Assembly: GCF_034087045.1 (NCBI RefSeq)
Contig: NZ_CP139247.1
Location: forward strand, 8,024,001-8,088,000
Source: Chitinophaga sancti
Lineage (GTDB): Bacteria > Bacteroidota > Bacteroidia > Chitinophagales > Chitinophagaceae
DNA length: 64,000 bases
Direction of reading: 5' to 3'
A program made the translations under genes and the position numbers. The notes beneath the pieces were generated by a model that was given only the letters and a program-made list of their open reading frames with translations, made no database searches and was not told the origin of the DNA. Positions 765 through 60,444 of the stretch are shown here, in pieces. Every line of letters starts with the position of its first letter. Position 1 is the stretch's first letter.

Positions 765-833
765 GACAACAAATTTAATATTCTTAAATATATTACCTTG
801 ACAAAGAATGTTAATTTCTTAATAATCTACCTT
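765..833 (-). repeat. Tandem copy of the ABC permease gene 3' end, stop codon included
   Basis: On the minus strand a 34-base unit (833 down to 800) starts in the last codons of the permease gene with AAGGTAGATTATTAAG and ends TTTGTC. It is followed directly by a 35-base copy (799 down to 765) starting AAGGTAATATATTTAAG and ending TTGTTGTC. Both contain the TAA in the same place. A third, poorly preserved stretch (about 764-730) may follow. The copy fills most of the gap to surE. Confidence 0.6.
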
Positions 834-1598
834 TAGCATCCTTCTGCATGTTATTCCTATAAACAGGGCGATGTACAGGATTATTGTGATTTCGTACACG
901 CCATGACTATAATCAGTACTGGTTGGCAGCACTTTATCCACCACAGGGAAAGGCAATAACTCATCTCCCGCCTGCAAAGGCAACAATCCCCCAATCGGAC
1001 CGAAAAAGTGCTTCACCCCCACTGTCAGCAACTGTTCCAGCACCATGGCATACCCCAGGTAAATCACCGTGGCCAGTCCGGACCGCTTGATAAACATACC
1101 CAACAACAAAGCCAGTGACAACGACACCAACACCTGCAAAAAATAGAAAAACAGGAACTGTACCCCCTCAAAGCTAAAATTAAAAGCGCTATAAGCAGTG
1201 CCAAAAGCAAGCGCTGTTATAAAACTTACCACAAACGCTATCAGGGACAGGGCTACCACCCAGAAAACCTTTGACAACACCAGGTCCATTCGTTCCCAGC
1301 CGTCAATCACCAGTTGCCGGTGGGTTTTGTAAGAAAATTCATTTGTTACCAGCGTCACCAGCAGCAATCCAAAGATGACAGAGGTAAAGCTATTCACATT
1401 CGCCACCGTCTGCCATACCACGGGGAAATCATAAAAGTTCTTCCCCAGCAGATCTGTTGCCTGCTTGGGTATCCTGCTTGCCACATCCGCCACAATCATA
1501 TTGGAAGCAGGGATCACGATGATGGCCAGTATCAGTAAAATCCAGAATGTCCGGTAGTTCTTTACCTTCAGCCACTCTATTCTAATTATGTTCAGCAT
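819..1598 (-). CDS. ABC-2 type transporter permease
   Basis: A 259-residue integral membrane protein with about six hydrophobic segments, the first at residues 16-40 after the cytoplasmic start MLNIIRIEWLKVKNYRTFW. Charge pattern and length fit the ABC-2 permease family used in exporters of the bacteriocin-resistance or Nod type. Its ATPase partner ends 4 bases upstream, so the two are translationally linked. The substrate cannot be told from sequence. The last codons lie inside a short tandem repeat that continues downstream of the stop. Confidence 0.85.
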   Translation of the reverse strand: MLNIIRIEWLKVKNYRTFWILLILAIIVIPASNMIVADVASRIPKQATDLLGKNFYDFPVVWQTVANVNSFTSVIFGLLLVTLVTNEFSYKTHRQLVIDGWERMDLVLSKVFWVVALSLIAFVVSFITALAFGTAYSAFNFSFEGVQFLFFYFLQVLVSLSLALLLGMFIKRSGLATVIYLGYAMVLEQLLTVGVKHFFGPIGGLLPLQAGDELLPFPVVDKVLPTSTDYSHGVYEITIILYIALFIGITCRRMLKVDY

Positions 1599-1602
1599 AA
1601 CT

Positions 1603-2490
1603 TCAGTTTTGTGTCATTTCAAGGAAAGCTGATTCCAGACTCTTCCTCCTTACCTGTAAATGATTGAGCCAGATGCCCTGACCTGCCAGCCAGCTATTCA
1701 GCTCTCCGGGATCTACAACACCGCTGAAAAACACCTGCAACACGCCATCCCCTATCGACAAATTCCCAAACATGGGATGCTGCCTGATTAAAACCTCCAA
1801 TCCATTCATATCACTGCTCCCGATCTCCACAAAATCCTCCCTCACCATCACCGTATTCACAGGTCCTGATGTCAGCAACTTCCCTTTTTGCAAAACAGCC
1901 ACATGGGTACACACCTTTTCCACTTCATCCAGCAGGTGACTGGCCATAATAATGGTCTTCCCCGATTGCGCCAATTGTTTGATCAATCCCCTGACTTCTG
2001 CAATCCCTGCAGGATCCAGACCATTGGAAGGTTCATCCAGGATCAGTACATCCGGGTCTCCCAACAGGGTATTGGCAATGGCCAACCGTTGCTTCATGCC
2101 CAGGGAATAAGTTTTGAATGCAGCATGTTGCCGGGCAGTTAACCCCGCTATCTCCAGCACCCGGGCAATGTCCTTTTCATCCCGCTGTTTCACAGCAGCT
2201 GTAATCTGTAAATTCCTAAACCCCGACAGGTAGTGATAGAAGTTGGGGGTCTCCAGCAAAGTGCCGATCTGTCGCCTTTGCGTTGCAGTGGGTAACTGGT
2301 CAAACAAGGTAAAGTCCCCGGTATCCGCCTTCAATACATCCGTCACAATACCTAACAGTGTGGTCTTGCCACTTCCGTTAGGACCAAGAATACCAAAAAC
2401 ACTGCCGCGAGGCACCTCAAAGGAGACCTCGCGCAGCGCTTGTAGGGAACCATATCTTTTTGAAATGTTCCGAAGTGTAAGTATAGACAT
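1603..2490 (-). CDS. ABC transporter ATP-binding protein
   Basis: A 295-residue nucleotide-binding subunit that powers the neighbouring ABC-2 permease. Walker A GPNGSGKT is at residues 36-43, the signature SLGMKQ at 129-134, and Walker B with catalytic Glu (VLILDEP) at 148-154; the D-loop NGLDP and the switch His (MASHLLDE) follow. The C-terminal 80 residues are the variable extension common in exporter ATPases (DrrA/CcmA group). The gene starts 15 bases after the FadN-type gene, so all three probably share one transcript, although a beta-oxidation enzyme and an exporter have no obvious joint task. Confidence 0.92.
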   Translation of the reverse strand: MSILTLRNISKRYGSLQALREVSFEVPRGSVFGILGPNGSGKTTLLGIVTDVLKADTGDFTLFDQLPTATQRRQIGTLLETPNFYHYLSGFRNLQITAAVKQRDEKDIARVLEIAGLTARQHAAFKTYSLGMKQRLAIANTLLGDPDVLILDEPSNGLDPAGIAEVRGLIKQLAQSGKTIIMASHLLDEVEKVCTHVAVLQKGKLLTSGPVNTVMVREDFVEIGSSDMNGLEVLIRQHPMFGNLSIGDGVLQVFFSGVVDPGELNSWLAGQGIWLNHLQVRRKSLESAFLEMTQN

Positions 2491-2505
2491 AAGTTAAATG
2501 GTGCG

Positions 2506-4905
2506 CTAATTCCGTATGGGTTTGCCGGTTTTGATCACACTTTGCAATCTTTCCAGGGTCTTTCGTTCACCCGCCAGGCTCAAAAATGCCTCTCTTTCCA
2601 GGTCCAGCAGGTACTGTTCGCTTACTACACTGGCTTCTGTCAGATCACCACCACACATCACGTAAGCCAGTTTACCGGCAATTTTTGAATCATGATCAGA
2701 GATATAATTACCAAACCGCATACTATGTATGCCTGTCAGCAACATGCCTAAGGCGCCACGCCCCAGCACTTTAATATCTTTTCGTTCTATAGGACGGGTA
2801 TATCCTTCTTCTGCTATTTGCAGTACACTACGCTTTGCATCTGCAATCAACCTTGACTGGTTCATAGTGATCTCGTCATGCCCAGCTCTCAATATACCCA
2901 GGTCAAAAGCTTCTTTGCCGGAGGTGCTTACTTTCGCCATAGCGATCGCCATAAAACGATCTTTAAGTGGCTCTTCTTCAATTCTTCCTTCTTTAAATTC
3001 ATCACTGGCCCTCACCGTCATTTCTTTGGTACCGCCACCACCTGGTATCAGGCCCACACCCAGTTCTACCAGTCCGATATAGGATTCAGCAGCTGCCTGT
3101 ACTTTATCTGCATGCAAACACATTTCACAACCACCACCTAACGTCAACGCATGTGGCGCCACGATTGTCGGAATGGAAGAATAGCGCAACCGCATGGTTG
3201 TTTTCTGGAACAATCTCACTGCCATATCCAGCTCATCATATTCCTGCTCAGCCGCCAGCATGAAGATCATGCCCACATTTGCACCAGCAGAAAAATTCGC
3301 CCCTTCATTGGCTAAGATCAATCCACGGAAATCTTTTTCCGCACGATCAATTGCTTTATTCACACCTTCCAGCACTTCCCCACCGATCGTGTTCATCTTG
3401 GTTTTCCAATCGAGGGTCACAATACCATCACCAATATCATAAAGGGTACATGCACTGTTTTTCCACACCACATTGCCAGAGAGATTTTCGAGGATGACGA
3501 ACGTCTCTGCACCAGGCAGTAATTTATAATCCTGGGTAGTAATATCGTAATAGTATTTCTTACCGTTTTCTACTTTGTAGAAATGTTTGATGCCTTTCGC
3601 CAGCATATCCTGCACCCACTTCGCTACCTTGATACCTTTTTCAGACATCGCCTGCAGGGTCTTTTCCACACCCAGCAGATCCCAGGTTTCAAAAGCACCA
3701 ATCTCCCAGCCAAAGCCGGCTTTCATGGCATCATCTACCTTATACAGATCGTCTGCTATTTCAGGGAGACGATTGGAAATATAAGCAAACAATAATGCGT
3801 GAAACTGCTGGTAAAACTGTCCTGCCTTATCCGTAGCCGCTGCCAGCATACGCAGACGTTGCTTCAGATCTTCCACGGGTTTAGCCGCTTCCAGGCTGGC
3901 AAATTTGGGTCGCTGTTTTGGCCCATATTCCATGGTTTTCAGGTTCAGGGTTAAGATCTCCTTGCCCCCTTCGCCTTTGGTCTTTTTGTAAAAACCCTGC
4001 CCTGTTTTATCACCCAGCCACTTATTTTCCACAACTTTTTCAAGGAATGGCGGAATCACAAAAATGTCGATGGCTTCATCATCCGGGCAATTTTCTTTTA
4101 CACCTTTCGCCACCTTCACAAGGGTATCAATCCCCACCACATCAGCAGTACGGAAAGTAGCAGATTTTGGTCTGCCGATGATAGGACCAGTGAGTGTATC
4201 TACTTCATCAATATTCAGGTCCATCTCCTGCATAATGTGGAAAATGGCCATGATAGAAAATACCCCTACCCTATTTGCAATAAAGGCAGGCGTATCCTTA
4301 CAGAGTACGGTGGTTTTGCCCAGGTACAGGTCTCCGTACTCCATCAGGAAACTGATGATGGCCGGATCTGTATGTGGGGTAGGAATAATTTCAAGTAAAC
4401 GCAGGTAACGGGGAGGGTTAAAAAAGTGAGTACCACAGAAATGTTTCTGGAAGTCTTCACTCCTGCCTTCCGCCATCAGGTGAATAGGAATACCGGAAGT
4501 ATTAGACGTAATCAACGTACCCGGTTTCCTGAATTTCTCCACCTGCTCAAAAACGGATTTCTTCACGTCCAGGTTCTCTACCACAACTTCAATGATCCAG
4601 TCTACGTTGGCAATCTGGGACATGTCGTCAGTAAAGTTTCCGGTACGAATCAGTTTTACCGCCTCCTTCGTGTACACAGGAGAAGGATTCGATTTTAACG
4701 TGGACTGCAGGGCATCGTTGACAATACGGTTTCTTACCGCTTTGCTTTCGAGGGACAAACCTTTGGCCTTTTCTGCATCATTGAGTTCCTTGGGGGCTAT
4801 ATCCAGCAACAATACCTGTACGCCTATCCCGGCAAAATGAGCTGCAATACGGGAACCCATCACGCCAGAACCTAAAACGGCCACCTTATGGATGTGTCTT
4901 TTCAT
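2506..4905 (-). CDS. 3-hydroxyacyl-CoA dehydrogenase / enoyl-CoA hydratase fusion (FadN type)
   Basis: A 799-residue bifunctional beta-oxidation enzyme: hydration of trans-enoyl-CoA and NAD-dependent oxidation of 3-hydroxyacyl-CoA. The order is dehydrogenase first, hydratase last, as in Bacillus FadN and the reverse of E. coli FadB. The NAD-binding loop GSGVMG is at residues 12-17, and the dehydrogenase motif GTHFFNPPRYL follows near residue 160. The crotonase domain near residues 510-700 keeps the CoA-site glycines and both expected glutamates (TLGGGCEMCLHAD and LVELGVGLIPGGGG). The usual partner, thiolase FadA, is not next to it. The ATG at 4905 has the Rossmann strand within eight residues, so the start is secure. 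Confidence 0.92.
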   Translation of the reverse strand: MKRHIHKVAVLGSGVMGSRIAAHFAGIGVQVLLLDIAPKELNDAEKAKGLSLESKAVRNRIVNDALQSTLKSNPSPVYTKEAVKLIRTGNFTDDMSQIANVDWIIEVVVENLDVKKSVFEQVEKFRKPGTLITSNTSGIPIHLMAEGRSEDFQKHFCGTHFFNPPRYLRLLEIIPTPHTDPAIISFLMEYGDLYLGKTTVLCKDTPAFIANRVGVFSIMAIFHIMQEMDLNIDEVDTLTGPIIGRPKSATFRTADVVGIDTLVKVAKGVKENCPDDEAIDIFVIPPFLEKVVENKWLGDKTGQGFYKKTKGEGGKEILTLNLKTMEYGPKQRPKFASLEAAKPVEDLKQRLRMLAAATDKAGQFYQQFHALLFAYISNRLPEIADDLYKVDDAMKAGFGWEIGAFETWDLLGVEKTLQAMSEKGIKVAKWVQDMLAKGIKHFYKVENGKKYYYDITTQDYKLLPGAETFVILENLSGNVVWKNSACTLYDIGDGIVTLDWKTKMNTIGGEVLEGVNKAIDRAEKDFRGLILANEGANFSAGANVGMIFMLAAEQEYDELDMAVRLFQKTTMRLRYSSIPTIVAPHALTLGGGCEMCLHADKVQAAAESYIGLVELGVGLIPGGGGTKEMTVRASDEFKEGRIEEEPLKDRFMAIAMAKVSTSGKEAFDLGILRAGHDEITMNQSRLIADAKRSVLQIAEEGYTRPIERKDIKVLGRGALGMLLTGIHSMRFGNYISDHDSKIAGKLAYVMCGGDLTEASVVSEQYLLDLEREAFLSLAGERKTLERLQSVIKTGKPIRN

Positions 4906-4962
4906 AGAACGCGTAATTTTTTATCGGTAAATGAATATAGGATATTATGCCGATATCCCGAA

Positions 4963-4992
4963 CAAAAAACCCTCCGGTAATGAGCCGGAGGG
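4963..4992 (-). terminator. Intrinsic terminator of metG
   Basis: A perfect 8-bp stem (CCCTCCGG at 4970-4977 pairing with CCGGAGGG at 4985-4992) with a 7-base loop. On the minus strand it is followed by six T residues. It lies 26 bases after the metG stop and separates metG from the FadN-type gene. Confidence 0.85.
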
Positions 4993-5017
4993 TATCTATC
5001 TTATTACATATTAAATG

Positions 5018-7078
5018 TTATCTCACTTCACTTCCTGGTGCAGTTTCCACATCAGGATTTACAAATACGAGCTTCCCACCTGCATCTTCTGCCATCAGGA
5101 TCATACCCTGGCTATCGATCCCCTTCATTTTGCGGGGAGCCAGGTTGGCCACCAGTGTTACCTGTTTGCCAATGATTTCTTCAGGTGAAAAGTGCAGGGC
5201 AATACCGGAAACCACGGTACGTTTTTCTGTACCGATATCTACCAGTAATTTCAGCAATTTATCTGCTTTCTTTACTTTTTCTGCCTCAACGATGGTACCT
5301 ACGCGGAGGTCCAGTTTAGCGAAATCGTCGTATTGAATATCTTCCTTTACAGGAGCTGGTTCTGCAGCAGGAGCTGCTTCAACAGGCTTTACTAAGCCAG
5401 CATGTAATTTTTCCACTTGTTCCTGGATTTTAGCATCTTCAATTCTGGTGAACAGGTATTGCGGTTCACGCATGGCATAACCGGTATTTACCAGTTTCAG
5501 GCTACCTGCATTTTCCCATTCCAGCATGCGGTCTACCACTTTCAGCATATGGCAGATCTTTTTGGCAGTACCAGGCATGAATGGATTGGACAAGATAGCC
5601 AGGTTAGCTGTCAGCTGTAAGCATAAATGCAGACAATTGTCAATCAGTTTTTGATTAGCTTCCTGTTCTTTTGCCAGCTTCCATGGTGCCTTACCTTGCA
5701 GGTAAACGTTACCACTACGGGCTACATTGATCACCTCTGCCAGCGCTTCCCTGAAACGATAATTTTCCAGTGACTCTTCTATTTTCTTCTTGGACTCCAG
5801 CAAATCGCTCAGCAATTTATCGTCTGTTTCATCCTTCACATCCAGGTGGAAAGGAGGCACTTTACCTTTGCTATACTTGTGTACCAGCACCATAGTACGA
5901 TTCACAAAGTTGCTAAAGATATCAGTCAGCTCACTATTATTACGCTGCTGGAAATCTTTCCATGAAAAGTCGTTATCCTTCGTCTCCGGTGCAGTCGCAC
6001 ATAGTACATAACGCAGAATATCTTCCTGGCCCGGAAAATCCTTCACATAATCATGCACCCACACCGCCCAGTTACGTGAAGTAGAGATCTTATCTCCTTC
6101 AATGTTCAGGAACTCATTCGCAGGTACATTCTCAGGCAATACAAATCCGCCATGCGCTTTCAGCATGGATGGGAATATGATACAGTGGAATACGATATTA
6201 TCTTTTCCAATAAAGTGTACCAGCTTTGAATCTTCTTTACACCAGTAATCCTCCCAGTTAGGCGTCAGTTCCTTGGTGGCAGAGATGTACCCAATCGGTG
6301 CATCGAACCATACGTACAATACCTTTCCTTCTGCATCAGGCAGCGGAACTTTGATGCCCCACTCACTGTCACGGGTCATGGCGCGGCTCTGCAAACCACT
6401 GTCCAGCCAGCTTTTACACTGACCATACACATTGTTTTTCCACTCCTTATGTCCTTCCAGCAACCACTTTTTCAGGAATGGTTCATAGTTTTGGAGTGGC
6501 ATGTACCAATGTTTGGTTTTTTTCTTCACAGGCACCGCATCACTCAGGGTAGAGCGTGGTGAAATCAGGTCGTCAGGACTGAGTGAAGTACCACAGCGTT
6601 CGCATTGGTCACCATATGCATTAGGATTACCACATTTAGGGCAGGTACCTACTATATATCTGTCAGCCAGGAATACCTTGGCAACATCGTCATAGAATTG
6701 TTCAGTCTCCTTTTCTTCAAACAGGCCATCGTCGTACATCTTCTTAAAGAAGGCAGCAGCAGTTTCATGATGGATCTGTTTGGTGGTACGGGAAAAGATA
6801 TCAAAAGAGATGCCCATATCAGCAAAGCTTTCGGAAATGATCTTATGATACTTGTCCACAATATCCTGTGGCGTTACACCTTCTTTCAGGGCTTTGATGA
6901 GAATGGGAACTCCATGCTCATCGGTGCCCCCAATGAATTTGACGTCTGCTTTCTTTGCACGCAGGTAGCGCACATAGATATCAGCAGGGAGGTAACAACC
7001 CGCCAGGTGACCAATATGAACTGGTCCGTTGGCATAAGGCAGGGCAGCCGTGATTAGATATCTGTTAAATTTTGCCAT
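5018..7078 (-). CDS. metG: Methionine--tRNA ligase
   Basis: Charges tRNA-Met with methionine in the cytoplasm. The 686-residue protein shows the class I HIGH motif at residues 21-24 (PYANGPVHIGH) and the KMSKS equivalent as KISTS at 330-334. A zinc knuckle has Cys 146, 149, 159 and 162 (CPKCG and CERCG). A C-terminal OB-fold tRNA-binding domain of the EMAP/Trbp111 type begins near residue 585 (FAKLDLRVGTIVEAEKV) after an Ala/Pro-rich linker. Length and architecture match the long bacterial MetG form. The start ATG is directly followed by the canonical N-terminus. Confidence 0.97.
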   Translation of the reverse strand: MAKFNRYLITAALPYANGPVHIGHLAGCYLPADIYVRYLRAKKADVKFIGGTDEHGVPILIKALKEGVTPQDIVDKYHKIISESFADMGISFDIFSRTTKQIHHETAAAFFKKMYDDGLFEEKETEQFYDDVAKVFLADRYIVGTCPKCGNPNAYGDQCERCGTSLSPDDLISPRSTLSDAVPVKKKTKHWYMPLQNYEPFLKKWLLEGHKEWKNNVYGQCKSWLDSGLQSRAMTRDSEWGIKVPLPDAEGKVLYVWFDAPIGYISATKELTPNWEDYWCKEDSKLVHFIGKDNIVFHCIIFPSMLKAHGGFVLPENVPANEFLNIEGDKISTSRNWAVWVHDYVKDFPGQEDILRYVLCATAPETKDNDFSWKDFQQRNNSELTDIFSNFVNRTMVLVHKYSKGKVPPFHLDVKDETDDKLLSDLLESKKKIEESLENYRFREALAEVINVARSGNVYLQGKAPWKLAKEQEANQKLIDNCLHLCLQLTANLAILSNPFMPGTAKKICHMLKVVDRMLEWENAGSLKLVNTGYAMREPQYLFTRIEDAKIQEQVEKLHAGLVKPVEAAPAAEPAPVKEDIQYDDFAKLDLRVGTIVEAEKVKKADKLLKLLVDIGTEKRTVVSGIALHFSPEEIIGKQVTLVANLAPRKMKGIDSQGMILMAEDAGGKLVFVNPDVETAPGSEVR

Positions 7079-7208
7079 GTTAACTGAAATAATCTTGAAA
7101 TCTATTTTATCCTTTTGGAAGAGCGAAAAGTATTTATCAACTTAGCCCTGTTAAAACTCCCAGCAAAAAAAGTGGGGCTTGTCTCGCGAATTCGTCATTC
7201 GCAGGTTG

Positions 7209-7216
7209 CAAAGGTA
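7209..7216 (-). promoter_or_regulatory. Possible -7 box of the metG promoter
   Basis: The minus strand carries TACCTTTG, an exact match to the Bacteroidota -7 consensus TAnnTTTG, about 130 bases upstream of metG. The -33 position shows TTTC instead of TTTG, so the call is tentative. Confidence 0.4.
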
Positions 7217-7233
7217 ACTTAAAGCGTAGAACA

Positions 7234-8142: not shown

Positions 8143-8212
8143 ATTTTAAGGGCACTTCTATAAAAGCAGGCCGCTATTGCATTAGCTCCTTTAAAAGCCG
8201 GCCGCAGGCCTT

Positions 8213-8263: not shown

Positions 8264-8274
8264 ATTTATATAAT

Positions 8275-30794: not shown

Positions 30795-31290
30795 TTCAAT
30801 CATCCTAAACTGCACCCGGTTTACGCAATCATCCTAAACTGCCCCTAGTTTATGCAATCGCCCTAAACCGCCTGTTCATCCGCATAGCCCACCATCTCCC
30901 CCGACCTACACCCGGTTTACACAATCATTCTAAACTATATATTCATCCACATAGTCCACCATCTCTTCCGACCTGCACCCGATTTACGCAATCGCCCTAA
31001 ACTATATATTCATCCACATAGCCCACCATCTCTCCCCGACCTGCACCCGGTTTACGCAATCGCCCTAAACTATATATTCATCCACATAGTCCCCCATCTC
31101 TCCCCGACCTGCACCCGGTTTACGCAATCGCCCTAAACTATATATTCATCCACATAGTCCACCATCTCTTCCGACCTACACCCGGTTTACGCAATCGCCC
31201 TAAACTATATATTCATCCACATAGCCCACCATCTCTCCCCGACCTGCACCCGGTTTACGCAATCGCCCTAAACTGCATATTCATCTCATC
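30795..31290 (-). repeat. 67-68-bp tandem array made from the engB 3' end
   Basis: Unit borders fall at 30847, 30914, 30981, 31049, 31117, 31184 and 31252 (steps of 67, 67, 68, 68, 67, 68), with shorter worn copies at 30795 and 30818. On the minus strand most units carry TAGTTTAGGGCGATTGCGTA followed by AACC, nearly identical to the last engB codons including the TAA. The engB coding copy (31252-31290) is the gene-proximal member. Units are 90 percent or more alike except at the distal end. Confidence 0.9.
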
Positions 31291-31863
31291 AATAAACTCC
31301 AATATCTTATCCCTCCCCATCTTCTTCACCGTACTCGTCACAAAATTCGCCGGCAAAAACTCCCAACTCTCCCTCAACTTATTCAAAAATGCCTTCACAT
31401 TCTTACTCGTCTCCGCCTGCGTACTCTTATCCGCCTTCGTAAATACCAGGTTAAAAGGAATCTGCCACTCCCCCAACTGATTCACAAAATCCAGATCCAG
31501 CTGCTGCGGCGTATGCCTGCTATCAATCAACACAAATACATTCACCAGATTCTGCCGCTTCCTTAAATAATTCTCAATCATCTTCTCCCAACTTCTCCGC
31601 TGAGACTGACTCACCTTTGCAAAACCATATCCCGGCAAATCCACCAGATACCAATCCTTATTAATCACAAAATGATTAATCAACTGCGTCTTCCCTGGCG
31701 TTCCGGAAGTCTTTGCTAACTTCTCATTGTTCGCTAACATATTGATCAATGAGGACTTACCCACATTTGACCTGCCAATAAAAGCATACTCCGGCAGATT
31801 CGGAGTAGGGCACTTATCCCACTCAACATTACTAATCAGGTATTCTGCAGACTTTATAATCAT
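31255..31863 (-). CDS. engB: Ribosome biogenesis GTPase EngB (YihA/YsxC)
   Basis: An essential GTPase for assembly of the large ribosomal subunit. All G motifs are present: GRSNVGKSSLIN (G1), GTPGKTQ (G2), DLPGYGFAK (G3), FTKADKS (G4) and a G5 region near VTSTVKK. The 202-residue length fits the family. I start at ATG 31863 with AAAGAG before it; the frame is open to TTG 31878. The last ten codons and the stop are part of the tandem array that continues about 460 bases downstream. Confidence 0.95.
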   Translation of the reverse strand: MIIKSAEYLISNVEWDKCPTPNLPEYAFIGRSNVGKSSLINMLANNEKLAKTSGTPGKTQLINHFVINKDWYLVDLPGYGFAKVSQSQRRSWEKMIENYLRKRQNLVNVFVLIDSRHTPQQLDLDFVNQLGEWQIPFNLVFTKADKSTQAETSKNVKAFLNKLRESWEFLPANFVTSTVKKMGRDKILEFIDEMNMQFRAIA

Positions 31864-33496: not shown

Positions 33497-34843
33497 ATGC
33501 AGACATATATCATCCGCAATATATCCGTAGTAAACGAAGGCAGTACCACTGTCCAGGACGTCCTCATCAGCAATGGCCGTATAGAAAAAATCGCTCCGCA
33601 GATCACCGTCAGCGGACAATACATTGAAATCAACGGCGAAGGCAAACACCTCCTCCCCGGTGTTATCGATGACCAGGTGCACTTCCGCGAACCCGGCCTT
33701 ACCCACAAAGCTACTATCTACACGGAATCCCGTGCAGCTGTAGCCGGCGGTACCACCAGCTTTATGGAAATGCCTAACACCATTCCCGCCGCCCTCACCC
33801 AGGAACTGCTGGAAGACAAATACACCATCGGTGCCAACCATTCCCTGGCCAACTACTCCTTCTTCATGGGCGTATCCAACGACAACGCTGATGAAGTACT
33901 GAAAACAAACGAAAAGAAAGACCGTATCTGCGGCGTGAAAATATTCATGGGGTCCTCTACCGGCAATATGCTGGTGGATAACTTCATCACCCTCGAACGC
34001 ATCTTTGGTGGTAGCGAAGTACTCATAGCCACCCACTGCGAAGATGAAAAGATTATCAAAACCAATCTCGAAAAATACAAACAGGAAGTAGGTCCGGAAA
34101 ACCTCACCGCCGCTTACCACCCCCTGATCCGTAACGAAGAAGGTTGTTTCGAGTCCTCATTGGTAGCTATCCAGTTTGCTAAAAAACACAATTCCCGTCT
34201 GCACATCCTGCACATCTCTACAGAGAAGGAATTACAGTTGTTCAGCAATATGCTGCCACTGGCAGAAAAACGTATTACCGCTGAGGTATGTGTACATCAC
34301 CTGTACTTCACTGCAGATGATTACGCCCGCTACGGCAATCTTATTAAATGTAACCCTGCTATCAAAGCAGCACACAATAAACATGGCCTCTGGCAAGGTT
34401 TGCTCGACGACCGTCTGGACATCATTGCCACCGACCACGCTCCTCACACCTGGGAAGAGAAACAACAACCTTACTTACAGGCGCCATCCGGCGTTCCTCT
34501 GGTTCAGCACAGTCTGCTGATGATGCTGGAACATGTATCCAAAGGCAATATCACCCTTGAGAAAGTGGTAGAGAAAATGGCGCATGCGCCCGCTATCTGT
34601 TTCCAGATAAAAGAAAGAGGTTTCCTGCGTGAAGGATACTTTGCGGACTGTGTGATCGTAGACCTGCAACAGGCCACCATGGTGGAAAAGAACAACCTCC
34701 ATTACAAATGTGGATGGTCTCCGCTCGAAGAACATACATTCCCTGCAGCCGTGACACATACATTTGTAAGTGGTCATTTGGCATATGAGAATGGTAAATT
34801 TAATGAGAGTGAGAAAGGGCAACGTTTGTTGTTCAACAGATAA
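33497..34843 (+). CDS. pyrC: Dihydroorotase (class I, Bacteroidota type)
   Basis: Closes carbamoyl-aspartate to dihydroorotate in pyrimidine synthesis. The 448-residue amidohydrolase has DDQVHFREPG near residues 58-67, where the usual HxH metal motif is QxH. Other metal and active-site residues are present: the Lys in GVKIFMGSSTGNML, His in THCEDE and HILHIST, and Asp in ATDHAPHTWEEK. I start at ATG 33497; upstream codons (MHYICG) are not conserved. The final codons TTC AAC AGA TAA begin a 24-bp tandem array. Confidence 0.88.
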   Translation: MQTYIIRNISVVNEGSTTVQDVLISNGRIEKIAPQITVSGQYIEINGEGKHLLPGVIDDQVHFREPGLTHKATIYTESRAAVAGGTTSFMEMPNTIPAALTQELLEDKYTIGANHSLANYSFFMGVSNDNADEVLKTNEKKDRICGVKIFMGSSTGNMLVDNFITLERIFGGSEVLIATHCEDEKIIKTNLEKYKQEVGPENLTAAYHPLIRNEEGCFESSLVAIQFAKKHNSRLHILHISTEKELQLFSNMLPLAEKRITAEVCVHHLYFTADDYARYGNLIKCNPAIKAAHNKHGLWQGLLDDRLDIIATDHAPHTWEEKQQPYLQAPSGVPLVQHSLLMMLEHVSKGNITLEKVVEKMAHAPAICFQIKERGFLREGYFADCVIVDLQQATMVEKNNLHYKCGWSPLEEHTFPAAVTHTFVSGHLAYENGKFNESEKGQRLLFNR

Positions 34844-35023
34844 TAAGGGTTACTTTTCAACTGATAACTTAGAACACTGTTCAATAGATAACAAAGAACA
34901 CCATTCTTCAGGTAACAAAAGGCGCTAGTCTAAAGATCAAATTGGCCGCTGTTCTACAAATAACCAAGGAAGCCATTCCACAACTCATAATGGCTTCCGT
35001 TCTACAAATAACAACGGCCTTTA
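34832..35023 (+). repeat. Eight in-register 24-bp units made from the pyrC 3' end
   Basis: Units start at 34832, 34856, 34880, 34904, 34928, 34952, 34976 and 35000, all exactly 24 bases apart. The first unit is coding (TTC AAC AGA TAA). Units 2, 3, 4, 6 and 8 keep TAA as the fourth codon in the same frame (TTC AAC TGA TAA, TTC AAT AGA TAA, TTC TTC AGG TAA, TTC TAC AAA TAA twice). Sequence between is less conserved. Confidence 0.8.
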
Positions 35024-35033
35024 CCAATATATT

Positions 35034-35067
35034 CACCCATCCTCCAAAAAGGATGGGTGTTTTTTTA
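35034..35067 (+). terminator. Intrinsic terminator of pyrC
   Basis: CACCCATCC (35034-35042) pairs with GGATGGGTG (35051-35059), followed by eight T. It lies directly after the pyrC repeat array. Confidence 0.9.
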
Positions 35068-51501: not shown

Positions 51502-51557
51502 ACTATAAGTTAGGCATTTTCAGCGAACTGAACAAATCATTTCCCGCAGTTTCGCCG

Positions 51558-51891
51558 CCACGCTGTCGTCGCTTCGCGATCACTCTGCTGCTACTCTGCC
51601 GTCGCTTTACCATCACTTTACCGCCGCTCTGCCGTCGCTTCACCATCACTTTACCACCACTCTGCCATCGCTTCACCATCACTTTGCCGCCGCTCTGCCA
51701 TCGCTTCACCATCATCCTACCGCCACGCAGCCGTCGCTTCACTATCACTTTGCCGCCGCTCTGCCGTCGCTTCACCATCACTTTACCACCACTCTGCCAT
51801 CGCTTCACCATCACCCTACCGCCACGCTGCCGTCGCTTCACTATCACTTTGCCGCCACTCTGCCGCCGCTTCGCCGTACATACTGCGCACT
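51558..51891 (-). repeat. 33-bp tandem array, ten exact-period units, behind the DUF983 gene
   Basis: Anchor CGCTTC/T occurs at 51570, 51603, 51636, 51669, 51702, 51735, 51768, 51801, 51834 and 51867, every step exactly 33 bases. On the minus strand a unit reads CGGCGGTAAAGTGATGG; the end of the DUF983 gene reads CGGCGGAGTTGTGAT with its TGA in the same place (11 of 15 bases alike). The array also forms an 11-residue repeat frame (VMVKRRQSGGK) at 51503-51847 that starts from GTG and is probably not a gene. Confidence 0.85.
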
Positions 51892-51911: not shown

Positions 51912-52319
51912 TCACAACTCCGCCGTATCCTCATCATAATACACAAAGAAATACAAATAAATCACCCTGCTTATCCGCATCATCCACGGCTGCAACAACA
52001 CCAGCAATACCCCATTCACCCCCAGCCACCAAAACACACTATCATCCTGCCACGAAATCCCAATCAACACCCAGTAACAAATCAGCGTAAACACCGAAAA
52101 CGCTACCCCCAGCGCATAACTCACATACCCGGTCCCAAACCAGAACCCCGTCTCCAACTCATACACCTGCCCACATACCGGACAACGTTCATACATGTTG
52201 AATATTTTCTTAAAACTCAAATGATATGGATTCTTATCCTTAAACATATCCCCCCTCCTGCAATGAGGGCACTTCATGGATAACATACTCAGAAAGTAGT
52301 TTGGTCTTTGATGGCTCAT
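51912..52319 (-). CDS. DUF983 membrane protein
   Basis: A 135-residue protein of the DUF983 family. Two Cys pairs (CPHCRRG near residue 17 and CPVCGQ near 45) form a zinc-ribbon-like head, followed by two membrane helices (about 58-80 and 84-105). Function unknown; the family occurs widely in Bacteroidota and alpha-proteobacteria. The codons next to its stop are related to the 33-bp array downstream. Confidence 0.85.
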   Translation of the reverse strand: MSHQRPNYFLSMLSMKCPHCRRGDMFKDKNPYHLSFKKIFNMYERCPVCGQVYELETGFWFGTGYVSYALGVAFSVFTLICYWVLIGISWQDDSVFWWLGVNGVLLVLLQPWMMRISRVIYLYFFVYYDEDTAEL

Positions 52320-52432
52320 ACCGCAAAATTACAATTATAATTTATATATCCTTTCTTCTTCCAACCAGCCACAAGCCGATTTCCTGCTGGCCTGTATTTT
52401 GTGTTACTTTCCTCAAAACAAAATCACCCATT

Positions 52433-52900: not shown

Positions 52901-53042
52901 ATAACAGGATGATCCGGACAAATGGAAATACCACCAATACCCCTCAAGCAAACAATGCATCAAACAAACAATGTGTACAAAGCCAAAGCTACAATGGCAA
53001 TAGCATCTTTCAGCAAACACATCCCCCTCCTATAAAAATCAG

Positions 53043-53072
53043 AAAGGTCGTCCACGCCCGGACGACCCTTCT
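53043..53072. terminator. Terminator between convergent genes
   Basis: AGGTCGTCC and GGACGACCC/T form a stem around ACGCCC, with CTTCTTTCT on the plus side and T-rich sequence on the minus side. It lies between the lipoprotein gene and the TonB receptor gene. Confidence 0.65.
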
Positions 53073-53095
53073 TTCTCTATCTGTATACGCAACGA

Positions 53096-55540: not shown

Positions 55541-55625
55541 AAAAATAAAATGGTTTAGAATAAATGCATGAATGCATGCATAGCGATTGACATTGCGTCA
55601 ATTCAATCAGATATAAAAGAGAATA

Positions 55626-55964
55626 TTAAAGGAAGAAAGCGGCAGGAGGTGCCCGGGGAGATAACATGCGGTAATCCTCCTGCGTAATAGCAGGGATAAC
55701 CGGGTTAGCATAATTCCATAATACGGATTGCGCCAGCACAGCAAAAAAAGTACTGGTGTGCTGATAAGGTTCCGGCTCTATCTGCAGGAACTTACAGTGC
55801 TGGTGTTTGATAGAAAAAGCAAGTCCATCGTGCGGGATAGGCGTGTCCCTGGTATCATGGTGATCCATAAATACCTGGTGTATGAATTCCCTGGGGGTCG
55901 TATTAAAAGTAAATACGCCCAGGAGCAGGATCGCCAGTATCTTATGTAGGAACCTGTTTTTCAA
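55626..55964 (-). CDS. Small His-rich exported protein, partner of the TonB receptor
   Basis: A 112-residue protein with an N-terminal signal or anchor (KILAILLLGVFTF) and a His-rich stretch (FMDHHDTRDTPIPHDG, KHQHCKFLQIEPE). Similar small proteins sit before TonB receptors in Bacteroidota. The HHD/HQHC groups suggest metal binding, but this is an inference. It shares an operon with the receptor gene. A promoter and a short palindrome lie upstream (55972-56002). Confidence 0.65.
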   Translation of the reverse strand: MKNRFLHKILAILLLGVFTFNTTPREFIHQVFMDHHDTRDTPIPHDGLAFSIKHQHCKFLQIEPEPYQHTSTFFAVLAQSVLWNYANPVIPAITQEDYRMLSPRAPPAAFFL

Positions 55965-55971
55965 AGTGAAA

Positions 55972-56007
55972 CAAAGGTAGGGGAATTCCTAATAAATGCA
56001 ACAATGT
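55972..56007 (-). promoter_or_regulatory. Promoter of the TonB receptor operon with a palindrome
   Basis: On the minus strand GTTG (56002-55999), 19 bases, TACCTTTG (55979-55972). The -33 box lies in the 11-base palindrome CAACA-A-TGTTG, a possible operator for a metal-sensing repressor. Confidence 0.55.
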
Positions 56008-56085
56008 TGTTAAATATAATGATGAGTGGTGAAAAAGAAATGGGGACGCATGTTACCATACGACCCCATTTATATATTAAATATT

Positions 56086-56335
56086 ATTGGCTATACCCTC
56101 ACTTACAGCATAGATCTCACCTCCTGGTACAGCATTATTGGTTATACCTTCACTTTCAACATAGATCTCACCTCCTGGTACAGCATTATTGGCTATACCC
56201 TCACTTTCAGCATAGATCTCACCTCCTGGTACAGCATTATTGGTTATACCTTCACTTTCAGCATAGATCTCACCTCCTGGTACAGCATTATTGGTTATAC
56301 CTTCACTTTCAGCATAGATCTCACCTCCTGGTACA
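56086..56335 (-). repeat. 51-bp tandem array made from the DUF1501 gene 3' end
   Basis: Five units start at 56086, 56137, 56188, 56239 and 56290, all 51 bases apart. The last (56290-56335) is coding and holds the stop (56295-56297); four copies follow downstream on the minus strand. Copies differ at only a few positions. The unit is 17 codons, so each TAA falls in the gene's frame. Each also contains AGGAGGTGAGATCTATG, a strong ribosome-site-like sequence before a 6-codon frame. Confidence 0.95.
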
Positions 56336-57878
56336 CCCCGTTCTGCAATCGGGCATAGAAGATACCAGCCGCCAGCTTTTTGCTATCAAACACCGTTGTA
56401 TACTCCCCTCCTGCCAGCACATTATTCACAGGCACCGCCACCAAACGACCCATGGTATCAAAGATCTGGATCATAGTATGCCCGCCACGAGTTTTGTACT
56501 TCAGGGTAGTCGTATCTACAAACGGGTTAGGATAGTTGGTTATCAACCCCTTACTACCATTATTCACATCATCAATACCTGTAATGGTACCACAAGCTAT
56601 ACCGCTTACAATTGGTAAGCGCTGGTAATCCTTGAACAAAATAGATTGCAACGTCGTATTGTCCACACAGAACCACTGTTCCAGCAAACTCGCATATACT
56701 GACCGAAAATCGTACTGCATCGGGGTATTATCCGCCACAGACCCGCTATCCGGAATATCCGGCGAAGTCCCCAGGATCCCCTGTTGTACATAATCGCCAA
56801 ATACAATCATCGGCGCAGCAGCACCGTGATCCGTACCCATACTGCTGTTGGATTTAATACGACGGCCAAATTCAGAAAAAGTCATACCCACTACTCTGCG
56901 GGACGCTTTCAGTTTGGTCAGGTCATCCATAAATGCCTTGATCCCTTCTGACAGTTCTGTCAACAATTCAGCATGATAACCAGTGGTGTTATCTCCACCC
57001 TCTGTCTGGCTGGCGTGGGTATCAAAGAAGCCCATGCTTACCATGTACATCCTTGTTTTCAATCCGCCTGCTACCAGTCTGGCTACGATTTTCAGCTGTC
57101 TGCCCAGTTGCGTATCCGGGTATTCACTTTGAGAAGTGACATTCTGTGCCGCTTTCTTGATAGCATCTGAAAACTTATTTGTCTGCTTGGCGATCAGGCG
57201 TATATAAGCTAGTTCTACCCCTGCATGCGTATCCGGAACCGGGTCCGCTACGTCATCTAACAGGTTATAAAAATCCGTCGCGCTGGAAATCGCAATCCCC
57301 GTATTGGTATTCGCCCCCTGGAAAGCAGGAGATACGATAGAACCAATCTGGATCGCCAGCGGATCAGGATTTTCATCGTTCGGATACCCATCAGGATAAC
57401 CCGGGTATTGTGTATCAAGATAGCGACCACCCCATCCTGTTTCGACAATCTCATTCGCATCAGAACCAGATACCCATATATCGGTAGCGCGGAAGTGTGA
57501 GTAGTTCGGTGAAGGATAGCCTACGCTCTGAATGATGCAGACCTTCCCTTCTTCATATAACTGCTGCACCCCGGTCATAGCAGGATGTAACCCTGTTTTT
57601 ACATTATTCACCAGTGGTAACAGCTTACCCTGGGGGATGGCGATATTTGGACGAATAGCCTGGTATTTATCATAGAGATCGATAGGCACGACCATGTTCA
57701 GGCCATCGTTCCCACCGACCAGCTGGATCATAACCAGAACGTGATCGTTGTCCGCCGAAGCACTTTCAAGTGCCGACAATAATGAGGAAGAGCCAAAAGC
57801 CTTTACTGCAAACCCGTTGATGAAGGTTGGCAGAATAGCGGCCGGCGCGGTATATTTAAGAAAATCTCTACGTTTCAT
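56295..57878 (-). CDS. DUF1501 protein with Tat-like signal and type IX sorting domain
   Basis: A 527-residue exported protein of the DUF1501 (alkaline-phosphatase-like fold) family. It starts MKRRDFLKYTAPAAILP, a twin-arginine signal (RRDFLK). The central motifs include MIQLVGGNDGLNMVVP and SEFGRRIKSNSSMGTDHGAA. The last 85 residues form a type IX secretion sorting domain (LITNYPNPFVDTTTLKYK ... GIFYARLQNG). It is the second gene of a two-gene operon with the DUF1800 gene, 28 bases apart. Function of the family is unknown. The last 13 codons and the stop are repeated downstream. Confidence 0.9.
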   Translation of the reverse strand: MKRRDFLKYTAPAAILPTFINGFAVKAFGSSSLLSALESASADNDHVLVMIQLVGGNDGLNMVVPIDLYDKYQAIRPNIAIPQGKLLPLVNNVKTGLHPAMTGVQQLYEEGKVCIIQSVGYPSPNYSHFRATDIWVSGSDANEIVETGWGGRYLDTQYPGYPDGYPNDENPDPLAIQIGSIVSPAFQGANTNTGIAISSATDFYNLLDDVADPVPDTHAGVELAYIRLIAKQTNKFSDAIKKAAQNVTSQSEYPDTQLGRQLKIVARLVAGGLKTRMYMVSMGFFDTHASQTEGGDNTTGYHAELLTELSEGIKAFMDDLTKLKASRRVVGMTFSEFGRRIKSNSSMGTDHGAAAPMIVFGDYVQQGILGTSPDIPDSGSVADNTPMQYDFRSVYASLLEQWFCVDNTTLQSILFKDYQRLPIVSGIACGTITGIDDVNNGSKGLITNYPNPFVDTTTLKYKTRGGHTMIQIFDTMGRLVAVPVNNVLAGGEYTTVFDSKKLAAGIFYARLQNGVYQEVRSMLKVKV

Positions 57879-57906
57879 ATTGATAGAGTATAGGTCTTTC
57901 TAAAGA

Positions 57907-59550
57907 TCAGGATAGTTGATATTCGGATAGGTTCATCAGGTATTTGTACAGCGTACGCAGACGGCTTTCAACGACTGTGCGCAATGCAGTATCTGTAGGA
58001 TAGGCCACCCAGGCATTCCAGGCATCTGTCCAGTAGTAGTCGCTGTCAGGGTTCTGCCCACTCAGTAGGATGGTATTTTTAAACCATGCCTTGGTGGTGT
58101 CAGATACACCTATACGGTACAAAATATCCAGTGAGTCAGAGATCAGTTGCTTTGGATCGGAAGGATTGGAAAGTCTTTGTGCAAAGGCCATCACATCGAT
58201 CGCCACACCTGCATAGCCACCTTCGCTGATCATGGCATCGGTGAGCTGGTTACGCTTAGGCAGGGTATCGGTGTTGATCCACATTTCATGGTATTGAGGT
58301 TCCTGGTAGTAAGGCTGCCAGCCGGCTACCTGTGGTGGTTCCCCAATATCCTGCAGCATGCTGGCTGCGTGAGAGCGCAGTCTGTCCCAGGAGTCGTAGG
58401 CATCCATATAAGCAGTCGGGAAGGTAACGCCGAATTCGCGCACCAAACCTACGTTGTGATCAATCGGACTTTTGATAAGTGCTGACATATTCAGCGGATC
58501 GTAAAAGTGCTCACTCTTGAAGAGGGCCCTGAGTACTGGCAGCAGATCGTAGTTGTTATTTCTGAAAATGTCTGCCAGTGGGGTGATCACATTTGTCTCT
58601 ACCGCATCGTCGATGAGGTAGTATACAAACCAGCGATACAGTTTGCGAACGATAAATTTCGCGCATTCCGGCTGGGCAAAGATGATAGTCAGCAGGTCGT
58701 CGAGTTCAGTCGCGCCATCCTGACCGGTTTTGCCGGTGATCTTTTTATTGCTGTAAAAGTCGGAGAATTCTTTGTTTTCAATATCATGCTCGGTACTCTC
58801 AAAGTACGTAGTGATGGTATTGGCATTGATGCGGAAACCAGTGAGTACGCGGGCGGTAGCACGCACGTCTTCTTCGGTGTAGTGGCTATCGGGGCCTTTA
58901 CCAACGGTGAACAATTCATGGAGTTCACGGGCATAGTTTTCATCCGCGCCTGCTTTGGAGTTGAGGTATCCGTTCAGGTATCTCAGCATGGCTGGGTCGA
59001 GGGTGATTGCTTTCGTGAGTGTTTTGAAATTGCCCACAGCGTTTGCACGCAGGGTGGTGTTGTACTTGTAGATGTAGCGGGAGTCGTGGGTCATATCCAT
59101 TTCGGTCACGAAGTGGTTATGCCAGAAAAGCGTCATTTTCTCCTGTATGCTACGACCTTGATTGATCATGACGCCGAGCCACCAGGCTTTGTAGGAGTTC
59201 CAGCGTTTGCCATCTTCATCATCGGAGGAAGGTGGGGGTGAATTCACCCAGGTTTCACCGGGAAGTATGCCATGTTCATCCTCACCATAGATGTTTACAG
59301 GTTGGGTAGTAACGGCGGTGACGGTGGTGAGCAGGGCTTCCACGGCCTGGTCCATGCCGAGACTTTTCACCCATGCAATATCTTCAGGAGTGGCGCCAAA
59401 CATGGTACGTTTGAGCAGGTGCACTGCCTGAGCGGTATCGAAAGTGCCGGTGTATGCGGAAATACCTGAATCCGTACGCGAACCGGTGGTAGTCGCTTTC
59501 ACTGCTGGCTGTCGTTTTGCTGATAGCGAAAGGAATTGTCTGCGATCCAT
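57907..59550 (-). CDS. DUF1800 protein
   Basis: A 547-residue protein of the DUF1800 family. Family blocks seen are HLLKRTMFGATPEDIAWVK, LFWHNHFVTEMDM, NENYARELHELFTVG-like ENYARELHELFTVGKG, VRATARVLTGFRI and WPYYQEP-like GWQPYYQEP. The N-terminus MDRRQFLSLSA looks like a worn Tat signal without a clear hydrophobic core. DUF1800 and DUF1501 genes are regularly paired in Bacteroidota and Planctomycetota; the joint role is not known. Confidence 0.88.
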   Translation of the reverse strand: MDRRQFLSLSAKRQPAVKATTTGSRTDSGISAYTGTFDTAQAVHLLKRTMFGATPEDIAWVKSLGMDQAVEALLTTVTAVTTQPVNIYGEDEHGILPGETWVNSPPPSSDDEDGKRWNSYKAWWLGVMINQGRSIQEKMTLFWHNHFVTEMDMTHDSRYIYKYNTTLRANAVGNFKTLTKAITLDPAMLRYLNGYLNSKAGADENYARELHELFTVGKGPDSHYTEEDVRATARVLTGFRINANTITTYFESTEHDIENKEFSDFYSNKKITGKTGQDGATELDDLLTIIFAQPECAKFIVRKLYRWFVYYLIDDAVETNVITPLADIFRNNNYDLLPVLRALFKSEHFYDPLNMSALIKSPIDHNVGLVREFGVTFPTAYMDAYDSWDRLRSHAASMLQDIGEPPQVAGWQPYYQEPQYHEMWINTDTLPKRNQLTDAMISEGGYAGVAIDVMAFAQRLSNPSDPKQLISDSLDILYRIGVSDTTKAWFKNTILLSGQNPDSDYYWTDAWNAWVAYPTDTALRTVVESRLRTLYKYLMNLSEYQLS

Positions 59551-59852
59551 AAAGTAATTGATATGGTTATATGGTATTAGGGATGAGTTTTAAAAATATA
59601 GGCTTTTACACGGTACCTGATTAAGGGTACAAGTTAGTAAAAATTTTAATGAGTGGGAGGAAAAATGTGGATTTGTTTGGAGATTTGTTTAGGGATTATT
59701 ACAACCTTCAATTTCAATATGATATTATGCTTATCATTTTGAAACTCATTTAATTTTAAAATGATAAAACTTTTGTCAGCCACCGTTTACAAAGGAAAAA
59801 ACGCCTATATTCATTTCGATCAAAACAATTAATAGACATTAATCTCGGGTTG
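59551..59852. other. AT-rich intergenic region
   Basis: About 300 bases between divergent genes. A 23-codon frame at 59761-59832 (MIKLLSATVYKGKNAYIHFD, then QNN) is possible but unsupported. I see no clear promoter. Confidence 0.35.
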
Positions 59853-60359
59853 ATGATTGAATACAACGACGACAATTCAGTTTCTAAATACTTTAAATCT
59901 GCCAGGCTAGGCATTAATAGTATCGCAACATTATTTGACCGGTATGAGAAAGAGATTCCGGTTTATGATGAACATGTTCAGTTAGCGGATCTGATATCTA
60001 ACCCTGAGGCAGTGCTACCTGTTTACACATTGACTGGCAATATTTTTAGAAGAGGGGAATTGTATATCTACCTGAAAGATAATAGTTTGCTTCCTGTATG
60101 GGATACGCTTGACCTGGTTTTATTGAAATGTGTTGATCAGGAGATGCTGGTAGCTGGGGATAAATATTATTTCGTGCTGGAAGATAAAAGGGAATTAGCG
60201 GGTGTTTTAACACATGATGAGACTCATTTTATTATCACACCAGCTAGTGAGGAGTATGATGAGGAGCGGTTGAAACCCGGTGCTGTTTTGAAGATGTATA
60301 AAATAATGGGTGGGTTAAAAAAGGAAGATGCACTCAGGGAGCGGGAGAAAAAGGGATAA
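59853..60359 (+). CDS. Unknown protein with a degenerate S24-like fold
   Basis: A 168-residue protein. The middle (LYIYLKDNSLLPVWDTLDLV, LVAGDKYYFVLED, GVLTHDETHFIITPASEEYD) resembles the C-terminal domain of LexA/HipB-type regulators with an S24 peptidase fold, but the catalytic Ser-Lys pair is absent. There is no N-terminal HTH. Function unknown. I use ATG 59853; TTG 59850 is also in frame. AT-rich accessory gene. Confidence 0.5.
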   Translation: MIEYNDDNSVSKYFKSARLGINSIATLFDRYEKEIPVYDEHVQLADLISNPEAVLPVYTLTGNIFRRGELYIYLKDNSLLPVWDTLDLVLLKCVDQEMLVAGDKYYFVLEDKRELAGVLTHDETHFIITPASEEYDEERLKPGAVLKMYKIMGGLKKEDALREREKKG

Positions 60360-60361
60360 AA

Positions 60362-60390
60362 GCCACCCCTGAAGATTCAGGGATGGGGTG
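60362..60390 (+). terminator. Possible terminator hairpin
   Basis: CCCTGAA (60367-60373) pairs with TTCAGGG (60376-60382), nested in CCACCCC and GGGGTG. No T run follows, so the call is weak. Confidence 0.3.
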
Positions 60391-60404
60391 CTGGAAAACC
60401 ATAT

Positions 60405-60444
60405 TTGAAGTCAATGAGCAATTAGAAAAGTCAATGAGCAATTA
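60405..60444 (-). repeat. 20-bp duplication starting at a lost stop codon
   Basis: On the minus strand TAATTGCTCATTGACTTTTC (60444-60425) is followed by TAATTGCTCATTGACTTCAA (60424-60405). The first TAA is the stop of the shifted frame of the 60479-60838 gene (see that entry). Confidence 0.7.

What the first reader, a model, noticed from the sequence alone, without database searches (positions are those of the whole stretch)
765..60444. Gene 3' ends, stop codon included, are repeated in tandem downstream of the gene at many loci
Tandem arrays outside coding sequence in this window lie just behind genes, and at the best loci the gene-proximal unit is the coding end itself. Clear cases: engB (30795-31290), pyrC (34832-35023), the DUF1501 gene (56086-56335). 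Good: the 33-bp array behind DUF983 (51558-51891), the ABC permease (765-833), the 60442 stop (60405-60444). Weaker: atpC, the MutS-like gene, gbsR. Units are mostly different in length (20, 24, 33, 34/35, 51, 67/68) and unrelated in sequence, so this is not one mobile repeat. A common process (local slippage starting at stop codons, or a function such as backup termination, RNA 3'-end protection or recombination) would explain it. The plain alternative is that slippage arrays grow wherever selection is weak, and 3' ends are the nearest such place.
Basis: partly seen in the sequence, partly recalled or inferred. Interest (0 to 1): 0.85.

Follow-up and report, generated by a model that had tools for sequence, protein, structure and literature searches.

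The report
Gene-tail minisatellites in a Chitinophaga genome
In this bacterium and two close relatives, short pieces of DNA that include the end of a gene and its stop signal have been copied in a row just behind the gene at dozens of sampled places; this is most likely a fast local copying error that is tolerated there, with a surplus right at stop codons that is not fully explained.

Summary
In samples of the window's genome and two relatives there are 43 cases of a tandem array straddling a stop codon and 4 of one straddling a start, among 1,614 well-supported genes. Stop-overlapping units are 22 to 324 bp, look unrelated, and are not preferentially multiples of three. Turnover is fast: of 13 orthologous 3' ends with an array in the window genome or ATCC 35208, 3 carry related units in both; other shared ends carry different units, so arrays are born in place repeatedly. 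Where a strong terminator is recognisable (50 of 108 arrays), 36 lie between stop and terminator. Best explanation: frequent local duplication and loss, filtered by selection that spares this zone. An excess at the stop itself (about 1.5 to 1.6 times) remains after controls for starts and terminators. Five of seven usable exact duplications have 2-5 extra bases at the junction, a hint of end joining. Backup stop codons are not supported. Outside this clade the pattern is not established.

The parts
31255..31863 (-). engB-type GTP-binding protein gene (stop 31257-31255)
   Evidence: Pfam MMR_HSR1 8.9e-20; gene call; relatives
30797..31285 (-). 68-bp tandem array, 6.5 copies, whose gene-proximal copy is the last 31 bp of engB
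   Evidence: TRF; sequence; the same unit in 2.6 copies in ATCC 35208
33497..34843 (+). pyrC-type amidohydrolase gene
34830..34919 (+). degenerate 24-bp array reaching 14 bp into the coding end; looser copies (ATAACA) follow by eye
   Evidence: TRF (69% match); no array flagged at this 3' end in ATCC 35208 or C. silvisoli
35034..35066 (+). intrinsic-terminator-like hairpin with T run, beyond the array (coordinates by eye)
   Evidence: sequence; terminator scan
51554..51872 (-). 33-bp array (11-bp sub-structure by eye), starts 39 bp after the DUF983 stop; does not contain the stop
   Evidence: TRF; sequence
51912..52319 (-). DUF983-like gene
   Evidence: Pfam DUF983 E 1.8e-4, 22.2 bits, just under its cut-off of 22.6
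56295..57878 (-). DUF1501 gene with a C-terminal Por secretion tail
   Evidence: Pfam DUF1501 4.1e-16, Por_Secre_tail 1.1e-6
56083..56335 (-). 51-bp array, five copies, including the last 41 bp of the DUF1501 gene and its stop; single copy in ATCC 35208 and C. silvisoli
   Evidence: TRF
56031..56071 (-). terminator-like hairpin just beyond the DUF1501 array (coordinates by eye)
   Evidence: sequence; terminator scan
60408..60444 (-). exact 17-bp duplication with a 3-bp filler; the first copy begins with the TAA at 60444-60442

Best explanation
These are short-lived minisatellites (VNTR-like arrays) born in place. Step 1 (shown at a few loci): a local tandem duplication, mostly of about 20-100 bp, arises, in some cases with 2-5 extra bases at the junction, in others between short direct repeats. 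Step 2 (shown by comparing relatives): it changes copy number and is lost quickly. Step 3 (inferred): selection removes duplications that hit starts, promoters or terminators but spares those from the coding end to the terminator, because a duplication spanning the stop leaves the gene-proximal copy, and so the protein, unchanged. As the stop-to-terminator space is short in most genes, units that avoid the terminator often have to reach back into the coding end. A modest bias of the duplication process towards 3' ends may add to this.
For: Asymmetry: 43 stop-straddling against 4 start-straddling cases in 1,614 genes; in gaps between co-directional genes arrays are nearer the stop in 29 of 39, 16 of 20 and 9 of 11 cases. 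Position: 50 of 108 arrays in convergent or co-directional gaps have a strong terminator in the gap; 36 lie between stop and terminator (null 26.4+-2.9), 8 overlap the terminator, 6 lie beyond it. Median stop-to-terminator distance in array-free gaps: 25 bp for strong terminators (n 416), 28 bp with the laxer threshold (n 565). Birth in place: the DUF1501 array has five copies here, one in ATCC 35208 and one in C. silvisoli. Turnover: own against ATCC 35208 (4-fold-site difference 0.118), 132 ortholog pairs, array at both 3' ends in 4, own only 5, relative only 4; 3 of the 4 share related units by eye. Own against C. silvisoli, 139 pairs: both 2, own only 3, relative only 7, no shared unit. 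ATCC 35208 against C. silvisoli, 174 pairs: both 4, 6, 6, all 4 with different units. Gene-proximal copy intact: the DUF1501 protein ends of own, ATCC 35208 and C. silvisoli agree by eye.
Against: Between a stop and the next strong terminator, arrays overlap the stop more than uniform placement predicts (16 of 29; null 9.8+-1.6; 2 of 1000 simulations reach it), and overall 41 of 102 against 25.2+-3.3 (0 of 500). With the array collapsed to one unit, array-bearing ends have a longer stop-to-terminator space (median 75 bp, n 29) than array-free ends (25 bp), so lack of room does not by itself force units into the coding end. In convergent gaps the avoidance of terminators is not significant (22 of 28 between, null 20.0+-2.0). 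Orthologous 3' ends gain arrays together more often than independence allows (Fisher p 6e-4, 0.03, 1e-3; not controlled for gap length or shared descent). In 100 kb of C. filiformis only 1 of 9 arrays overlaps a stop, though a second one does with the gene calls. Tolerance should act in every genome, yet high density is seen in few.
Confidence: 0.6

Rival explanations
1. A mutational process directed to gene 3' ends: breaks or nick pairs at sites where RNA polymerase stops or collides are filled in and joined by end joining, copying the overhang in tandem.
For: Stop-proximal excess beyond two tolerance nulls. Of 13 exact two-copy rows of period >=18 (12, 1 more), 6 were set aside (4 inside larger arrays, 1 a run of N, 1 a simple repeat); of the 7 left, five have 2, 3, 4, 5 and 5 extra bases, one has 0, one has 3 bp of microhomology (2 of the 7 are in coding sequence). 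Six of the 7 Chitinophaga genomes searched for Ku pass its cut-off; the seventh, strain YR573, has only a 63-residue remnant and 0 arrays in 100 kb. Recurrent arrays at the same orthologous ends.
Against: Ku passes its cut-off in 58 of 60 genus genomes, so it cannot explain why few genomes are array-rich; C. cymbidii, pinensis YS-16 and G061 have Ku and few or no arrays in 30-100 kb. Four arrays of >=95% identity have 7 to 38 bp of terminal homology. One Ku-poor genome is one data point.
Confidence: 0.22
2. The arrays are functional 3'-UTR elements (RNA 3'-end protection, spacing between stop and terminator, backup stops) kept by selection.
For: Location between stop and terminator; convergent gaps are richest, 22 arrays in 143 gaps, against 39 in 602 co-directional and 7 in 183 divergent.
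Against: Units look unrelated in sequence; fast gain and loss between close species; no in-frame stop enrichment, no strong folding signal (mean z -0.86, though 22% of cases are below -2), no preference for periods divisible by 3 (15 of 46). Ho and Hurst find no selection for additional stops in bacteria (PMC6764699, abstract and outline seen).
Confidence: 0.1
3. The arrays are copies of one dispersed repeat or mobile element, like BIME/REP arrays.
For: An 11-bp TTCGANNNTTG family does recur at five places.
Against: The engB array matches only itself and its own edge in the whole genome (the only unit so tested); consensus units look unrelated by eye; stop-spanning units contain their own gene's coding end.
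Confidence: 0.02
4. Assembly artefact.
For: Tandem repeats are a common source of assembly error (general knowledge).
Against: The same kind of array appears in separate public assemblies of ATCC 35208 and C. silvisoli, often with diverged copies.
Confidence: 0.02

Closest known systems
Bacterial VNTRs / minisatellites
   Same: Non-coding tandem arrays of tens of bp, locus-specific units, copy number differing between close relatives (engB 6.5 against 2.6 copies)
   Different: Position bias: units contain the end of the neighbouring gene and its stop codon, recurrently and with new units at orthologous ends
REP/BIME arrays of enterobacteria
   Same: Sit in non-coding space next to gene 3' ends; the one array in our E. 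coli control (period 98, between fre and fadA) is of this type by recall
   Different: REP/BIMEs are conserved palindromic families; these units look unrelated to each other and derived in place
MIRU elements of mycobacteria (recalled)
   Same: Tandem repeats at gene junctions, near stop codons
   Different: One dispersed family; here each array has its own sequence
Tandem duplications with filler at end-joined staggered breaks (recalled from plants)
   Same: Short direct duplication with a few extra bases between copies
   Different: Not demonstrated here; the junction sample is seven

Membership tests
VNTR / minisatellite | tandem head-to-tail copies of a unit above about 10 bp | tested here: met
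   TRF
VNTR / minisatellite | copy number varies between close relatives | tested here: met
   engB 6.5 against 2.6 copies; DUF1501 five against one
VNTR / minisatellite | varies between strains of one species | not tested
   no second strain known to be of the same species was examined
REP/BIME | conserved palindromic unit shared between loci | tested here: not met
   whole-genome search with the engB array finds only its own place and edge; consensus units differ by eye
slipped-strand duplication | terminal microhomology in fresh duplications | tested here: inconclusive
   five of seven usable exact two-copy cases have filler, one has none of either, one has 3 bp; four other arrays have 7 to 38 bp
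end-joining duplication | Ku present and needed | tested here: inconclusive
   Ku in 58 of 60 genus genomes; need for it not testable here
backup stop codons | in-frame stops enriched downstream | tested here: not met
   121 in frame, 133.5 mean of the other frames, 46 array ends

The most novel reading that the evidence does not exclude
Gene 3' ends are mutational birthplaces of minisatellites in this clade: breaks tied to transcription termination next to the stop codon are filled in and end-joined, copying the gene tail in tandem, so that 3' ends evolve by repeated independent array birth and death.
Probability: 0.14. Interest if true: 0.72.

Novelty: new variant of a known kind. Interest (0 to 1): 0.45.

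Why it matters
If the stop-proximal excess is mutational, gene 3' ends become a natural recorder of where bacterial chromosomes break and rejoin, and the array-rich Chitinophaga clade a ready model. If it is only tolerance, it is a map of the zone (coding end to terminator) in which insertions are harmless, and a source of strain markers. In the rows listed by the literature searches made here (open-access library only, lists capped at 8 to 15 rows) I saw no title or abstract start that describes stop-spanning tandem arrays as a genome-wide pattern.

Tried and rejected
Mobile repeat: rejected (consensus units). Backup stop codons: rejected. In-frame protein extension: periods not biased to multiples of 3 among stop-overlapping arrays (19, 15, 12 for remainders 1, 0, 2), and the protein ends before the second copy. 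Reverse-transcribed mRNA ends: unlikely, since only 8 of 50 arrays overlap a strong terminator. Regional clustering: arrays are over-dispersed along the genome (index 1.9 in 20-kb bins; maximum of 2000 shuffles 1.68); bin counts correlate with the number of convergent gaps (rho 0.31, p 0.004) and not with GC, coding score or non-coding share; cause unknown. Ku as cause of array density: weak, Ku is nearly universal in the genus. Distant sets (27 loci) were too small and their gene calls too poor (coding 0.56) to say much; Niastella and Gillisia stretches (60 kb each) held no arrays but Niastella gene calls were poor (coding 0.67). Papers beyond the listings: abstract and outline of PMC6764699; passages only of PMC2734929, PMC4501049 and PMC9426551, none of which describes this pattern in the passages seen.

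Known weaknesses: genes were called with a script of my own. It found 43 of 48 annotated stops in one 50-kb stretch of E. coli K-12 and no extra ones, but region R1 was under-called (coding 0.70). Four of the 46 stop-overlapping array ends belong to short or weakly scored gene calls. Chitinophaga genomes other than the window's, ATCC 35208 and C. silvisoli were sampled with 100 kb each, or less. In one search the shuffle control for folding keeps only base composition. Simulated nulls assume uniform placement. Of one search's 23 arrays of >=95% identity, 14 fall in its 'filler' class by arithmetic, but the larger negative values may be partial copies and were not counted as filler.

Full report
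What the window shows. TRF and the sequences confirm stop-spanning arrays at engB (68 bp x 6.5), the DUF1501 gene (51 bp x 5) and, in degenerate form, pyrC (24 bp x 3.8, 69% match), and an exact 17-bp duplication at 60408-60444 whose first copy begins at a TAA. The 33-bp array (51554-51872) lies 39 bp beyond the DUF983 stop and does not contain it. Nothing was reported at 765-833.

Origin. The window is 8,024,001-8,088,000 of one 8.32-Mb contig. Its engB protein is 100% identical to that of [Flexibacter] sp. ATCC 35208 and 95% to that of Chitinophaga silvisoli, so the organism belongs to that Chitinophaga group.

Is it more than chance? In 1.66 Mb of this genome 68 non-coding arrays (4 of 72 dropped because their gap exceeds 2 kb) overlap 35 gene 3' ends and 5 gene 5' ends by at least 3 bp. 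Placing one unit at random in the same collapsed gaps gives 24.4+-2.8 and 11.6+-2.4. In 400 kb of ATCC 35208 the figures are 14 and 0 (null 8.2 and 5.9), in 400 kb of C. silvisoli 6 and 1 (null 3.0 and 2.3). Counting only genes of at least 100 codons with a good coding score in all three genomes: 1,614 genes, 43 stop-straddling and 4 start-straddling cases (homologous arrays in different genomes count apart). Genes with an array at or within 60 bp of the 3' end against the 5' end: 60 against 16 of 1,233; 24 against 5 of 293; 14 against 3 of 272.

Is tolerance enough? Excluding 100 bp before starts still leaves 31 of 76 arrays overlapping a stop by at least 10 bp against 21.0+-2.6 expected (0 of 500 simulations reach it); without exclusion 41 of 102 against 25.2+-3.3. 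A strong terminator was recognised in the gap for 50 of 108 arrays: 36 lie between stop and terminator (null 26.4+-2.9), 8 overlap it (13.1+-2.7), 6 lie beyond (10.5+-2.0). The effect is clear for co-directional gaps (14 of 22, null 6.4+-2.0) and not significant for convergent ones (22 of 28, null 20.0+-2.0). Within the stop-to-terminator zone alone, 16 of 29 overlap the stop against 9.8+-1.6. Array-bearing ends have a longer collapsed stop-to-terminator space (median 75 bp) than array-free ends (25 bp), so shortage of room is not the whole reason for reaching into the coding end. So selection against hitting starts and terminators explains much but, under these simple nulls, not all. One ordinary source of the remainder was not tested: duplications that begin inside the coding end, shift the frame and bring a new stop into the array.

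History of single arrays. At engB, ATCC 35208 has the same unit in 2.6 copies, C. silvisoli a faint repeat of its own stop region (by eye), C. filiformis DSM 527 a 77-bp array that begins 2 bp after the stop and reaches into the convergent neighbour; 14 of the 16 Chitinophaga-type loci have no TRF array within 10 bp of the engB stop. The DUF1501 array is single-copy in ATCC 35208 and C. silvisoli; G061 has what looks by eye like an older second copy with other spacing. Among ortholog pairs, arrays at both 3' ends occur in 4 of 132, 2 of 139 and 4 of 174 pairs, more than independence predicts (Fisher p 6e-4, 0.03, 1e-3). In the first comparison 3 of 4 have related units (by eye); in the other two none of 6. 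Arrays are therefore born, changed and lost on the scale of a 4-fold-site difference of 0.12 to 0.32 (equal-length orthologs), and some ends attract or admit them repeatedly.

Junctions. Thirteen exact two-copy rows of period 18 or more were found (12, 1 more). Six were set aside: four inside larger arrays, one a run of N, one a simple repeat. Of the seven left, extra bases between the copies number 2, 3, 4, 5 and 5 in five, 0 in one, and one has 3 bp of microhomology; two of the seven lie in coding sequence. The DUF1501 array itself has 2 extra bases per unit. Four other arrays of at least 95% identity have 7 to 38 bp of terminal homology. Slippage alone does not predict filler; end joining does. 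A full Ku hit is found in this genome and in 58 of 60 genus genomes. Strain YR573, with only a Ku remnant, had no array in 100 kb, but three Ku-bearing genomes are also array-poor, so this is a lead, not evidence.

Function. In-frame stops are not enriched behind the stop (121 against 133.5), folding is only slightly stronger than in base-shuffled sequence (mean z -0.86, 22% below -2), and units do not favour multiples of three. The sense strand of stop-overlapping arrays has purine content 0.584 against 0.575 in all gene ends, and GC skew 0.27 against 0.16; this is unexplained.

Spread. Array density per 100 kb: own 4.1, ATCC 35208 8.2, C. silvisoli 5.0; C. filiformis 9.0, YR573 0, C. cymbidii 2.0, pinensis YS-16 3.0, Niastella 0 and Gillisia 0 (60 kb each), E. 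coli K-12 0.5 in 200 kb, a single array of BIME type by recall; G061 0 in 30 kb. In the four more distant Chitinophaga samples together 2 of 14 arrays overlap a stop and none a start (the 77-bp filiformis array would be a third with the gene calls). So the stop-spanning pattern is shown for the window's clade and not yet for the genus.

Verdict. A real, clade-level pattern: gene-tail minisatellites that are born in place and turn over fast. Mostly tolerance, with an unexplained surplus at stop codons and a hint of end joining.

Noticed in passing
genome G000:C1 at 213, 334, 581, 2982 and 3894 kb: An 11-bp repeat family TTCGANNNTTG forms short arrays at five places; all 15 pattern matches are on the + strand, none on the - strand, none for the reversed control.
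   Followed up: partly
window 51503-51847: Open frame inside the 33-bp array, most likely spurious: a 33-bp period keeps one frame open. Pfam gives only a hit below its cut-off.
   Followed up: partly
window 60440-60838: The open frame 60479-60838 ends in TGA, and another frame continues to the TAA at 60442; this could be a frameshifted gene end. Only described.
   Followed up: no
own genome 257,342-257,760 (R1): 45-bp array of 9.3 copies in a divergent gap whose unit holds an inverted repeat (GAGCCGA..TCGGCTC by eye).
   Followed up: no
L085-L088, L093, L094 near 4035-4256: A short 16- or 25-bp repeat just upstream of a gene start is found in six Chitinophaga-type loci, unlike the fast-changing 3' arrays.
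   Followed up: no
G051 (no Ku hit) and G046 (63-residue Ku remnant; same hit coordinates as G005, strain YR573): Rare loss of Ku in the genus: 2 of 60 genomes without a hit over the cut-off.
   Followed up: partly
R1 257-381 kb of the sampled genome: Arrays cluster regionally; dispersion index 1.9 against at most 1.68 in 2000 shuffles.
   Followed up: partly
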